From: Sulfurimonadaceae bacterium
GTDB lineage: Bacteria; Campylobacterota; Campylobacteria; Campylobacterales; Sulfurimonadaceae
DNA: 64,000 nt
Direction: 5' to 3'
Assembly (NCBI GenBank): GCA_028683835.1
Contig: JAQUHB010000005.1
Span: 1 to 64,000, forward strand
This document shows, in pieces, positions 44,832-49,391 of the stretch (position 1 is the stretch's first letter; every line of letters starts with the position of its first letter). The translations under genes and the position numbers were made by a program. The notes below the pieces were generated by a model that saw only the letters and a program-made list of their open reading frames with translations, searched no databases and was not told where the DNA came from.

Positions 44832-44931
44832 CCTTCCATGTAAAGTTTTTAAAAGGATAACATAAATATTTTCTAAAATAAGAAAATTTAATATACATAA
44901 CTGTTTTATTTGAGTTAGAATATAGCGGTAG

Positions 44932-44949
44932 AAAAAAAAAGGGGGGGGG
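44932..44949 (+). repeat. A9-G9 homopolymer tract at the ribosome-binding position
   Basis: gAAAAAAAAAGGGGGGGGGtaactATG directly upstream of the 44955 porin ORF. Confidence 0.9.
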
Positions 44950-44954
44950 TAACT

Positions 44955-46208
44955 ATGTTAAAGAAAATGGTATATTTTTTGCCCTTCTTCTGTTTATCTC
45001 GTATAAGTGCTGAAGAATCTTTAAATTTACGCGATTTTTATGCAAAAGCGGGTGTTAGCGGAGAGTTGAGAGCACTCTATCAATATAACTCTCAGTATGA
45101 ATATTTAGATGGCAAAAGCGGTACGAGCAATACGGGAGTATTGGGTGGTAAAGTAAGCCTCACATCGGGGAATGTGTATGGTTTTGATGCAGTGTTAAGC
45201 GGATATGGGGCATTTAGAGGATTTGAAGATAAAAATAAAGTTGAAGTCGATTATCTCAATAATGGCAGAGGAAATGCCGATTACTCGTTACTTGGAGAGT
45301 CTTTTGTCAGATACACAAAAGATAGCGATTTTATTCAAATAGGACGTTTTGGGCTTGATACTCCACTTTTAAATTCTGATGATGTGCGTATGACACCCGA
45401 TTTTTTTGAGGGTGTTCATGCTTCTGTAAAGATGTTGGACGCCTTTATATTGGATGGTGGATATATCGATGCAATTGCAGGATGGGAAAATCTTGGAGAT
45501 AATGCAAAGTTTGAAAACATAGGGGATGCTATAGATCTTTCCGGCAATTTTTCAGGCGGTTATCATGTAGGAAAATCTTCTATCATCTTTGCCGGAGTTA
45601 CTTTTGCAGATGAAAAAAATCTTTTTAATTTCCGTGTATATGATTATTTGACGCAGAAAGTGATGAATCAGTTATATATGGAGAGTTCTTTTAAAGCTGA
45701 TATTTATGAGCTAGGTGCTCAATATTTGAGAAGTGTATCTGATAGTAGACTTGAAAATTTCGGCGGAAACGACATTATCGATTCTACTGCTTATGGCCTG
45801 CGCGGATGTGTCAATCTTAACAAAGTGGGGTTTACTTTGGCTTATGACGAGGTCTTAAAAAGAAAAAATACTCTTTTTGATGGTGGAACTCCTGATTTTT
45901 TTGGAGGGGCTAACGATCCATTTTTTACTTCTATGGACTTGCTTGTTCCAAATCAGCTCGGCGGAGTTAAGGTTTATAAAGGAGAGATTTCTTATACTCC
46001 AACGGATGATTTTTCTCTTAGTGTGGCGCATGCTTTGTTTCACAAAGGGGATGGATATGATCAAAGTGAGAGCGATCTTACGCTCAAAGCTACTTTGTAT
46101 AAAAATATAGAAGCGGATATGAAGTTATCTAGTCTCAATGAAACAGATAGTATAGGTAATGTCACAACAAATAATCGTGTTCGTGCATTACTAAAAATGA
46201 AATTTTAA
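44955..46208 (+). CDS. OprD-like outer-membrane porin
   Basis: Signal peptide; LRDFYAKAGVSGELRALYQYNS; strands throughout; terminal LLKMKF. Confidence 0.8.
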   Translation: MLKKMVYFLPFFCLSRISAEESLNLRDFYAKAGVSGELRALYQYNSQYEYLDGKSGTSNTGVLGGKVSLTSGNVYGFDAVLSGYGAFRGFEDKNKVEVDYLNNGRGNADYSLLGESFVRYTKDSDFIQIGRFGLDTPLLNSDDVRMTPDFFEGVHASVKMLDAFILDGGYIDAIAGWENLGDNAKFENIGDAIDLSGNFSGGYHVGKSSIIFAGVTFADEKNLFNFRVYDYLTQKVMNQLYMESSFKADIYELGAQYLRSVSDSRLENFGGNDIIDSTAYGLRGCVNLNKVGFTLAYDEVLKRKNTLFDGGTPDFFGGANDPFFTSMDLLVPNQLGGVKVYKGEISYTPTDDFSLSVAHALFHKGDGYDQSESDLTLKATLYKNIEADMKLSSLNETDSIGNVTTNNRVRALLKMKF

Positions 46209-46220
46209 ATGGAGGCAGGA

Positions 46221-47825
46221 ATGAGTATAAAACAAAAATTGATATTAGGTCTTACGCTGATATTTGTGGGAGTTATAGTAAATATTTTAGTGGGCAGTGT
46301 GACTATTTCCAATGTATACAAACTAAGTGAATCAGCAGCACATGAATCGATTCCTCGTGCGCTTGACGCTACAGATGCCAAGTATCAGGTCTCACAAGTC
46401 CAGCAGTTTTTGACAGATGCATCTTTGACACAAAATCAGGATTCCGTAAAAGAGGCACAAGAAGCCAATGATGCTTTTATGAAAGATATGGGTAGATTTG
46501 AAGCGATGTTTCAAAAAGAGAATAACAACAAAAGCCTCTCTATGGTGAGAGTTTCAAAAAATGACATGCAAGAACTTTTTATAGTGGGCAAAAAGATGAT
46601 GGCAAGTTATGGTGTGAGCAAAGCTGATGGCGACAAAGTGATGGAAGATTTTGATGCGGCGAGTGCAAAACTGATGTCAAAGGTCGACGAGATCAAAAAA
46701 GCACAGGTTGCTGAAGCGATAAGCAATTCAGAGCAGACAATGGAAAAAGCAAATTTTACAAAATATTTTTCACTTATGATCGGAATAGCTACGATTATGA
46801 TGGGGCTTTTGGTGGGCTATTTGCTTTCCAATAATATTTTGATGTCGATTAAAAAACTTGGTGATGTTATTGAAGTCGTAGCTCAAAACCATGATTTTAC
46901 TCAAAATGTTAAATTTGAAGGGAATGATGAGCTTTCTCAGATGGGAGAAAAGATCAATCACCTAGTTACTGTATTACGTGAATCATTTTGTGAGATTGGA
47001 AGTACATCTCATGAAAACCTTTCTGTAGCTACACAACTTTCAGCTACAACCCATTCAATAGGAAAAGCAGCGGAACATGAAGCGCAGATAGTCTCAGAGA
47101 CAACAAGCGAATCGCTTTTGACAAAAGATGCGATTATTGCCTCAGCGTCTAAGGCACAGAATGTAAAAATAAAAGCATTACAAGCCAGAGAGAGCCTTCA
47201 AGAAGCGCAAAATACTCTTAGTGAAACAAATTCTGAGTTGATACTTACTGTAGAGATGGAATCTGAGATGAATGCAAAGCTTCATTCTCTTTCGCAAGAA
47301 GCATCACAAGTAAAACAGGTCTTGACTGTTATCTCGGATATTGCAGATCAAACAAATCTTCTAGCGCTCAATGCAGCCATAGAAGCGGCGCGTGCAGGAG
47401 AACATGGACGCGGATTTGCCGTGGTCGCCGATGAGGTAAGAAAGCTTGCTGAGCGTACACAAAAAAGTCTTGTAGAGACAAATGCAACAGTCAATGTCAT
47501 AGTGCAGTCGATCATGGAAATCACAGAACAGATCACTACCAATACGCAGCGTATCGAAAATCTCGCCGAAGCATCTGAGCAGGCTGGGCATAATACACAA
47601 ATGGCCGTAAGTTCACTTTCTCAAGCGGTTGAAAATATTGAGGAGCTTGCCACGGATTCTCAGATGAATGCTTCTGCAATAGAAAAAATCATTATGAAGA
47701 TAGAAAATATTCGTACATACAGCACATCTAATGCAAAAAATGTTGAAGAGATAGCTGGCGCTGCAGAACATCTCCATATGATGACACAAAACTTGAGTAC
47801 AAAAATCAGTATTTATCGCACATAA
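46221..47825 (+). CDS. Methyl-accepting chemotaxis protein (transmembrane)
   Basis: Two TMs; signalling tip [42 protein letters not shown] 46221 after GGAGGCAGGA. Confidence 0.95.
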
Positions 47826-47828
47826 ACT

Positions 47829-47912
47829 ATAGTTATTTTTATCATATTCATGTAGAAATTACAAAAACTGCGGGTTTGCCTGCAGCTTTTGTCTGCCAAA
47901 ACTTCAGCCGTA
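47829..47912 (+). pseudogene. 5' remnant of a radical-SAM gene homologous to the gene at 48513
   Basis: About 80% identity by hand alignment with 48513-48596; start codon lost and one-base indel. Confidence 0.8.
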
Positions 47913-47948
47913 CGCGGTATAATTCGCCAATTTTTTTCAGGATATTTC

Positions 47949-48509
47949 ATGAGCGAAACTCTTCTCATCCTTGCCATTGCCCTTGCCATGGACTCTGTCG
48001 CGGTTTCTATTGCGATTGGCTCAAAATACCGTGATCTTCTTCTTTGGCGTACCCTCTTTGTTGCCGGAGTTTTTGGTTTTTTCCAAGGAGTGATGCCGAT
48101 TGCCGGTTATTTCATAGGAATCAGTTTTGCTGATTATGTTCAAGCGTACGATCACTGGATCGCTTTTGTATTATTGGTAGGATTAGGCGGTAAAATGCTC
48201 TATGAAGCCTACCAAAATGAGTTTGACGAAGAGGTTACGGATCTGTCGAATAAAACACTTATCACCTTGGGGATTGCAACAAGTATCGATGCCATGGCAA
48301 TCGGGGTGACATTTGCTTTTTTACAAACCGATATTTTCACTGCGTCATCTATTATTGCCCTTGTGACTTTTGTTCTTTGTATCGCGGCAGTGTATGTCGG
48401 GAAAAAATTGGGTTCACTGCTTGAGAGCAAAGCGGAGATGCTTGGAGGGATCATCCTCATCGGTCTTGGCTGTAAGATCTTAGCGGAGCATACAGGATTG
48501 ATAGGTTAA
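47949..48509 (+). CDS. mntP: Manganese efflux pump MntP
   Basis: ILAIALAMDSVAVSIAIGSKY...GIATSIDAMAIGVTFAF; ATG 47949 preferred since the track start lies in the remnant. Confidence 0.9.
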   Translation: MSETLLILAIALAMDSVAVSIAIGSKYRDLLLWRTLFVAGVFGFFQGVMPIAGYFIGISFADYVQAYDHWIAFVLLVGLGGKMLYEAYQNEFDEEVTDLSNKTLITLGIATSIDAMAIGVTFAFLQTDIFTASSIIALVTFVLCIAAVYVGKKLGSLLESKAEMLGGIILIGLGCKILAEHTGLIG

Positions 48510-48512
48510 ACA

Positions 48513-49391
48513 ATGAGTTATTTTCATCGTGTTCATGTAGAGATCACAAATATCTGCGGTCTTGCATGCAGCTTTTGTCCCCCAAAACTCCAACCCACAA
48601 AAACAATGACTTTGGAGTTTTTTGAAAAAATCTTAGCAGAGTTGAAGCCCTATACAAAGAGTTTAGCTTTCCATGTAATGGGTGATCCTCTCACTCTTTC
48701 AAATCTCGATAAGTATCTTGATCTGGCTTTGCAATATGCTTTTGAAGTAGAGCTCACGACAAGCGGATATTATCTCAAAAAAAATCCTATTTCGACACTT
48801 TTTCATCCCGCTGTAAGACAGCTCAATATCTCGCTCAACGCTTATAATAAAAATGATTCAAATCTCAGTTTTGAAACATATATGCAGGGTGTTTTGGAAG
48901 TATGCGATGCAAAACTTCAAAACTTTCCAAAACCTTTTATAAATCTGCGTGTCTGGAATCTTGATGAAGCGTGTTCGGAACTCTCATTTAATGAACAGCT
49001 TTTTATAGTTTTAAGAGAGCATTTTGAACAGAAACTGCAGATGGATGAGATTGTCAAAAACAAGATAAAATCTTTTCGACTCGCTTCGAAAATACTCCTC
49101 AATTTTGACAGCTATTTTGAATGGCCGTCCTTGAACTCTTCTCATGAAAGCCACGCAACATGTTATGGTTTAAAATCACATATTGGCATATTGGCAAATG
49201 GAGTTGTCGTACCATGTTGCCTTGATGGCGAGGGTGTTATAAACCTTGGAGACTTATATGAAAGCTCGCTTGAAGAGATACTTTCTTCAAAGCGTGCACA
49301 AGATATGATCAAAGGTTTTGAAAAGGGGAAGGCAGTCGAAGAACTGTGTTTGAAATGTAGCTATAAAGACAGATTTCAAGAATCTTTTTAA
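48513..49391 (+). CDS. Radical SAM/SPASM domain protein
   Basis: HVEITNICGLACSFCPPK (CxxxCxxC); C-terminal VVPCCLDGEG and CLKC. Confidence 0.93.
   Translation: MSYFHRVHVEITNICGLACSFCPPKLQPTKTMTLEFFEKILAELKPYTKSLAFHVMGDPLTLSNLDKYLDLALQYAFEVELTTSGYYLKKNPISTLFHPAVRQLNISLNAYNKNDSNLSFETYMQGVLEVCDAKLQNFPKPFINLRVWNLDEACSELSFNEQLFIVLREHFEQKLQMDEIVKNKIKSFRLASKILLNFDSYFEWPSLNSSHESHATCYGLKSHIGILANGVVVPCCLDGEGVINLGDLYESSLEEILSSKRAQDMIKGFEKGKAVEELCLKCSYKDRFQESF

What the first reader, a model, noticed from the sequence alone, without database searches (positions are those of the whole stretch)
44932..44957. A9-G9 tract at the Shine-Dalgarno position of a porin gene: candidate phase-variable porin (and chemoreceptor)
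The tract gAAAAAAAAAGGGGGGGGG lies 5 nt before the ATG at 44955, so the poly-G is itself the ribosome-binding element. A -10-like TAGAAT/TATAG lies just upstream, so the tract is in a very short leader. Poly-G tracts mediate slipped-strand phase variation in Campylobacterota (established for Campylobacter and Helicobacter). Here slippage would change RBS strength/spacing or promoter geometry rather than reading frame. The MCP at 46221 begins just after the porin stop and could be co-regulated.
Basis: partly seen in the sequence, partly recalled or inferred. Interest (0 to 1): 0.65.

Follow-up and report, generated by a model that had tools for sequence, protein, structure and literature searches.

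The report
Slippable poly-G ribosome-binding site, porin–chemoreceptor operon
In an uncultured sulfur-type bacterium, the ribosome-binding site of a porin gene that lies directly before a chemotaxis-receptor gene is a run of nine As and nine Gs of the kind that changes length by slippage, and related bacteria carry similar runs at their own porin–receptor gene pairs, so the run may tune how much porin and receptor are made.

Summary
Observation confirmed: A9 (44932-44940), G9 (44941-44949), TAACT, ATG 44955. The G9 is one of only two in the 2.51-Mb genome, where all other G/C runs of 6 or more appear to be exactly 6. It precedes an OprD-family porin; an MCP follows 12 nt after the porin stop, with no terminator found between them.

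The Shine-Dalgarno (SD) reading is supported. In Sulfurimonadaceae, intergenic G>=9 runs lie 3-12 nt before an ATG in 9/76 cases on the G strand and 0/76 on the C strand; for A>=7G>=8 runs, 12/42 and 0/42. Three other OprD-porin/MCP operons carry a G9-G10 run at a member's SD, at different genes. A composite tract at two near-identical loci elsewhere differs in both parts (A8G8, A10G9).

Phase variation itself is not shown: no reads, no sister strain, no sequence ortholog of this porin. A thermodynamic model says SD strength saturates at about G5, so slippage around G9 should be a graded tuner at most (G-run pairing with early codons, or an unknown sRNA), not an ON/OFF switch. Neutral expansion of an ordinary SD remains a serious rival.

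In passing: A7G8 occurs in 164 of 397 class genomes, its mirror G8A7 in 4.

The parts
44892..44921 (+). promoter-like site TATACA-18-TAGAAT; implied start of transcription just before the tract
   Evidence: 9 of 12 matches; number of such sites is at chance level, so tentative
44932..44940 (+). A9 tract, 5' part of the composite tract
   Evidence: A>=7 directly 5' of G>=9 recurs in relatives, none of 5 or more on the 3' side
44941..44949 (+). G9 tract serving as Shine-Dalgarno element (AAAGGGGG/GGGGG against CCUCC, 5 nt before ATG)
44955..46208 (+). OprD-family outer-membrane porin, 417 aa with signal peptide-like N-terminus
   Evidence: PF03573 E=4.4e-9
46221..47825 (+). methyl-accepting chemotaxis protein (MCPsignal, HAMP-like segment), 12 nt after porin stop
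47868..47885 (+). terminator-like hairpin after the MCP; the only + strand one found between 44800 and 48000
44979..44991 (+). C/U-rich stretch in codons 9-13, predicted to pair with the G tract
   Evidence: fold not better than shuffles, z=-0.63

Best explanation
The A9G9 run is an expanded Shine-Dalgarno sequence in the short leader of a porin-MCP operon. Being a G9 run it should be prone to slipped-strand changes, and it works as a length-dependent tuner of translation of the porin, possibly with knock-on effects on the co-transcribed chemoreceptor. Length does not act by frameshift. Short runs (below about G5) would weaken the SD; longer runs keep the SD but are increasingly hidden by pairing with C/U-rich RNA, either the porin's own codons 9-13 or a trans-acting RNA. 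Shown: sequence, position, SD complementarity, recurrence at start codons and at other porin-MCP operons, length variation of such composite tracts at another locus. Inferred: slippage rate here, co-transcription, any effect on expression, any benefit.
For: G9 at the exact SD position, one of two in the genome. Strand-specific enrichment: intergenic G>=9 runs 3-12 nt before the ATG of an ORF >=100 aa in 9/76 on the G strand against 0/76 on the C strand (null 1.6%, p=3e-6); A>=7G>=8 runs 12/42 against 0/42 (null 2.0%, p=2e-11). Porin-MCP operons with an SD G-run: Sulfurimonas Kmv11 MCP-[A7G10]-porin, Sulfurimonas clean459 [A8G10]-MCP-porin, WHONDRS MAG [G9]-MCP-porin. The MCPs of the first two are 73% identical and syntenic, yet the run sits at a different gene in each, so it arose more than once. 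In the WHONDRS MAG the porin SD is an unexpanded AAAAAAAGGGGAAGAG-ATG, showing the likely seed. Two near-identical loci (99.7% over 292 nt) carry A8G8 and A10G9. Other SD-run genes include an NIT-domain receptor, three response regulators, a LuxR regulator, a DNA methylase, a mannose-1-P guanylyltransferase-like NTP transferase and SulP. Published slippage frequencies for C. jejuni G8 and G11 tracts are 0.004 and 0.02 (PMC4965091).
Against: No length variation could be seen at this locus. The genome is a draft of 88 contigs with no 16S found, so a consensus tract may hide or misstate length. The model gives flat SD strength for G5-G14. The fold that hides the SD is no better than shuffled sequence. 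No sequence ortholog of the porin in the 7 other genomes of the genus (best partial matches 26-34%) or beyond (best 32-35%), so no conservation test. The porin-MCP association is small and partly ascertained: of the three tract-bearing pairs, two were found through their tracts.
Confidence: 0.45

Rival explanations
1. Neutral expansion: ordinary A-rich SD sequences (AAAGG) are natural seeds for G-run growth, and because any run of five or more Gs is still a good SD, growth is tolerated. The tract varies but has no regulatory role.
For: SD strength predicted flat from G5 on, near-constant rates at other loci; an A7G4 SD in an orthologous operon looks like the seed; SD-run genes include metabolic ones such as rhodanese, PNPOx and an NAD(P)H oxidoreductase.
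Against: Repeated occurrence at porin-MCP operons and a good number of surface, sensory and regulatory genes among the 23 others looked at; G runs of 7-8 are absent from the genome while 9 occurs, an odd pattern for drift.
Confidence: 0.32
2. RepG-like control: a small RNA with a C/U-rich loop pairs with the G run, and the run length sets whether and how strongly it represses, as for tlpB-hp0102 in Helicobacter pylori.
For: Closest published precedent: leader G-repeat of a bicistronic mRNA that includes a chemoreceptor, gradual control by length (PMC8295292). Same phylum.
Against: Here the run is the SD itself, so pairing would simply block ribosomes.
Confidence: 0.12
3. The tract acts at transcription: the A9 lies within the first transcribed bases and RNA polymerase slips there, making leaders of mixed length or aborting.
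For: If TAGAAT is the -10, A9 begins about 3-5 nt into the transcript.
Against: Promoter match at chance level; tract is downstream of -10 so promoter spacing is unaffected.
Confidence: 0.06
4. Assembly or sequencing artefact (A-then-G runs resemble two-colour Illumina read-through).
For: Draft genome, homopolymer, A-then-G polarity; some A7G8 sites in relatives lie near contig ends.
Against: A7G8 sites also occur deep inside the megabase contigs of G035, G087, G091, G098, G100 and G200 and one locus is shared by two near-identical records; here the 106-kb contig runs on normally on both sides. The exact count of 9 could still be off.
Confidence: 0.05

Closest known systems
tlpB-hp0102 leader G-repeat and RepG sRNA, Helicobacter pylori (PMC8295292)
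   Same: Variable-type G run in the 5' leader of a bicistronic mRNA that includes a chemoreceptor; [quoted passage not shown]
   Different: There the repeat is shown apart from the RBS and a sRNA reads it; here the run is itself the SD, the first gene is a porin, and no sRNA is known
Poly-G contingency loci of Campylobacter (PMC6321876, PMC4965091)
   Same: G8-G11 runs, same class of bacteria, surface genes
   Different: 77% of Campylobacter poly-G/C tracts lie in reading frames and switch by frameshift; this one cannot. A 2026 C. jejuni study excludes promoter or SD tracts because they are expected to act quantitatively (PMC13317227)
espR 5'UTR 7G tract, Mycobacterium tuberculosis (PMC11898584)
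   Same: One-base change in a leader G run alters translation, by a model of changed mRNA folding
   Different: Tract lies 144 nt upstream of the start at the transcript's 5' end, not at the SD
OprD porin / MCP gene pairs of Sulfurimonas (L342, L343, L409 here)
   Same: Adjacent, same-strand OprD-like porin and MCP; three carry an SD G9-G10 run
   Different: Those of G121 and G188 sit next to feoB and all three porins are only about 25% identical to this one; gene order differs

Membership tests
Simple-sequence contingency (phase-variable) locus | Homopolymer of a length known to slip (G>=8) | tested here: met
   G9 and A9; published G8-G11 slippage in C. jejuni
Simple-sequence contingency (phase-variable) locus | Tract length varies between cells or isolates | not testable with these tools
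   No reads, no sister strain, no sequence ortholog; another composite tract does differ between two genomes (A8G8/A10G9)
Simple-sequence contingency (phase-variable) locus | Length change alters expression | tested here: inconclusive
   Model only: SD energy flat G5-G14; graded fall for this gene, about flat for three others
Frameshift-type contingency gene | Tract inside the reading frame or between alternative starts | tested here: not met
   In-frame TAG 44916, no start reads through the tract
RepG-type G-repeat leader | G-repeat in the mRNA leader of a chemoreceptor operon | tested here: inconclusive
   G9 just before the porin ATG, MCP 12 nt after porin stop, terminator-like site only after the MCP; co-transcription and leader not measured
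RepG-type G-repeat leader | Repeat separate from the RBS | tested here: not met
   Here the run is the SD itself
RepG-type G-repeat leader | C/U-rich-loop sRNA that reads the repeat | not tested
   No genome-wide sRNA search was made; only the window was scanned with Rfam
OprD porin family (PF03573) | Profile match above curated cut-off | tested here: met
   36.3 bits against cut-off 25
Methyl-accepting chemotaxis proteins | MCPsignal domain | tested here: met
   PF00015 E=7e-35; HAMP PF00672 24.9 bits, just below cut-off 25

The most novel reading that the evidence does not exclude
Free-living Campylobacterota have a class of contingency loci in which the hypermutable A(n)G(n) run is the ribosome-binding site, used as a translation rheostat, and it settles repeatedly on paired porin-chemoreceptor operons so that nutrient entry and taxis vary together between cells.
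Probability: 0.25. Interest if true: 0.7.

Novelty: new variant of a known kind. Interest (0 to 1): 0.5.

Why it matters
Phase variation is mostly studied in pathogens and mostly as frameshift switching. An SD-embedded slippery run would give graded, heritable differences in translation in environmental chemolithotrophs, and a porin-receptor pair is a natural target. The set of loci listed here makes it directly testable. SD-context tracts have been set aside as quantitative or lumped with promoters in the catalogues read here (PMC6321876, PMC13317227).

Tried and rejected
Sister-locus comparison: no sequence ortholog of the porin in the genus, family (best 35%), plasmids or the 85k-species collection. 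Leader similarity to the MCP leaders of relatives: none. Repeat of the leader elsewhere in the genome: none meaningful. Terminator reading of the run on the C strand (C9T9): rejected here, no hairpin uses the Cs (L239), although it fits some other A(n)G(n) sites. Rfam on the window: nothing. 16S for the anti-SD: not found in the draft, so the standard tail was assumed. Literature for SD-slippage phase variation: searches gave no direct precedent, only the remark in PMC13317227. Metagenome-collection scans were capped at zero and not attempted.

Full report
Observation. The tract is as described: A9 at 44932-44940, G9 at 44941-44949, TAACT, ATG at 44955. The gene is a 417-aa OprD-family porin (PF03573, E=4.4e-9). 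An MCP with a HAMP-like segment (24.9 bits, just under its cut-off) and an MCPsignal domain (E=7e-35) starts at 46221 with its own GGAGG SD, 12 nt after the porin stop; a terminator-like hairpin is found only after the MCP (47868-47885). Only two G9 runs exist in it; every other G/C run of six or more gives a single 6-mer place, so is exactly six. A Markov estimate gives about 0.4 such runs per strand per genome, so a G9 somewhere is not astonishing by itself; its place is what needs explaining.

Is the place meaningful? I took every G>=9 run in 8 genomes of the genus and 41 of Sulfurimonas and classified their surroundings. Of 76 intergenic runs, 9 have the ATG of an ORF of at least 100 aa 3-12 nt downstream on the G strand and none on the C strand; the expectation for intergenic positions of the same loci is 1.6% (p=3e-6). 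For A>=7G>=8 runs across 228 genomes of the family the figures are 12/42 and 0/42 (p=2e-11). The strand asymmetry is what an SD role predicts. It does not separate selection from neutral growth of an SD seed. The window's run is part of both sets.

What genes carry such SD runs? Besides this porin: an OprD-like porin, an NIT-domain receptor, MCPs, response regulators (L150, L265, L272), a LuxR-type regulator, a C5 DNA methylase, an NTP transferase of the mannose-1-phosphate guanylyltransferase kind, SulP, a secreted Lcl-domain protein, but also rhodanese, PNPOx, an NAD(P)H oxidoreductase, a RimK-like ligase and others. The set leans to surface and sensing but I did not test it against a proper background.

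The porin-MCP link. In Sulfurimonas Kmv11 (G121, L342/L420) the order is MCP, A7G10-ATAGAT-ATG porin, feoB. In Sulfurimonas clean459 (G188, L343/L410) it is A8G10-AAAGACA-GTG MCP, porin, feoB. In a WHONDRS MAG (L409) it is G9-TAATC-TTG MCP, porin. The first two MCPs are 73% identical and the loci syntenic, but the run is at the MCP in one and the porin in the other, so runs came and went. In L409 the porin's SD is AAAAAAAGGGGAAGAG, an unexpanded form. Among 80 OprD loci from a collection scan 13 had an MCP next to the porin; the three loci with a G run of six or more at a porin or MCP start are all such pairs. Nominal Fisher p for 3/13 against 0/67 is 0.0035 (my arithmetic), but two of the three porins were in the query alignment because of their tracts, and without them (1/11 against 0/67) it is not significant. 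The window's own porin is distant from these (about 25%) and has no close relative: in three genomes of the genus the MCP has orthologs (61-64%) followed by the same radical-SAM gene, and in two of them, where the upstream side is on the contig, there is no porin before it. So the porin-MCP arrangement here is separate.

Does such a run vary? At this locus I cannot tell. At another, two records with 99.7% identical flanks over 292 nt have A8G8 and A10G9, so both parts of such a composite tract can change. Published slippage frequencies for G8 and G11 in C. jejuni are 0.004 and 0.02 (PMC4965091).

What would a change do? With the standard 16S tail (assumed) the anti-SD pairing energy is about -10 to -11 kcal/mol from G5 to G14 with a good register always available; it collapses only below G5. 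A simple initiation model gives nearly constant rates for the G188 and L409 MCPs, within about twofold for the G121 porin, and for this porin a decline with length (relative to G9: G7-G8 about 7, G11-G12 about 0.5, G13 0.14) because the run pairs with C/U-rich codons 9-13. That fold is not better than in shuffled sequence (z=-0.63) and the values jump between lengths, so this is a hint only. So I reject a clean switch and prefer a graded tuner, or no effect. The published precedent for graded reading of a leader G-repeat is RepG on tlpB-hp0102 (PMC8295292); a 2026 C. jejuni study states that SD-context tracts should act quantitatively (PMC13317227).

Membership. It meets the sequence criterion of a contingency locus; the defining variability and effect are untested. 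It is not a frameshift-type locus. It resembles the RepG/tlpB arrangement in plan but differs in that the repeat is the SD, and no sRNA is known. New variant of a known kind, if functional.

A side result. A7G8 occurs 45 times in 228 family genomes and its mirror G8A7 once; across 397 genomes of the class 164 have A7G8 and 4 have the mirror. The 5' A-run of G>=9 tracts has a second hump at 8-9+ while no 3' A-run exceeds 4. SD seeds explain 16 of 74 examined and a terminator reading on the other strand perhaps some more; most are unexplained.

Noticed in passing
class-wide; loci L237-L311: Strong polarity of composite homopolymers: A7G8 in 164 of 397 Campylobacterota genomes, mirror G8A7 in 4; the A part clusters at 8-10. 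SD seeds and terminators explain only part.
   Followed up: partly
L306 and L307 (G357, G341): Near-identical loci (99.7% over 292 nt) with A8G8 versus A10G9: both parts of a composite tract vary.
   Followed up: yes
L242 about 1500: A10G9 facing a C10 run 13 nt away, 46 nt before a 484-codon frame: a G9/C10 hairpin leader or opposite-strand terminator.
   Followed up: partly
L178, L233, L256, L276: G9-G10 tracts abut a shared sequence (about CAACGGCATTAAGTTAAGC) that looks like a mobile-element end.
   Followed up: no
L140, L146, L212 (G005, G006, G151): G10 tracts inside or at the junction of long open frames, candidates for ordinary frameshift-type phase-variable genes in Sulfurimonadaceae.
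   Followed up: no
L342, L343, L409: Fur-box-like sequences (GATA..TATCATTAT) near the porin or feoB side of the MCP-porin-feoB loci, suggesting an iron link.
   Followed up: no
window 46221-49391: The MCP has orthologs followed by the same radical-SAM gene in three genus relatives; the window has an added porin before it and an MntP-type manganese exporter after it, and relatives have a second MCP copy nearby.
   Followed up: partly
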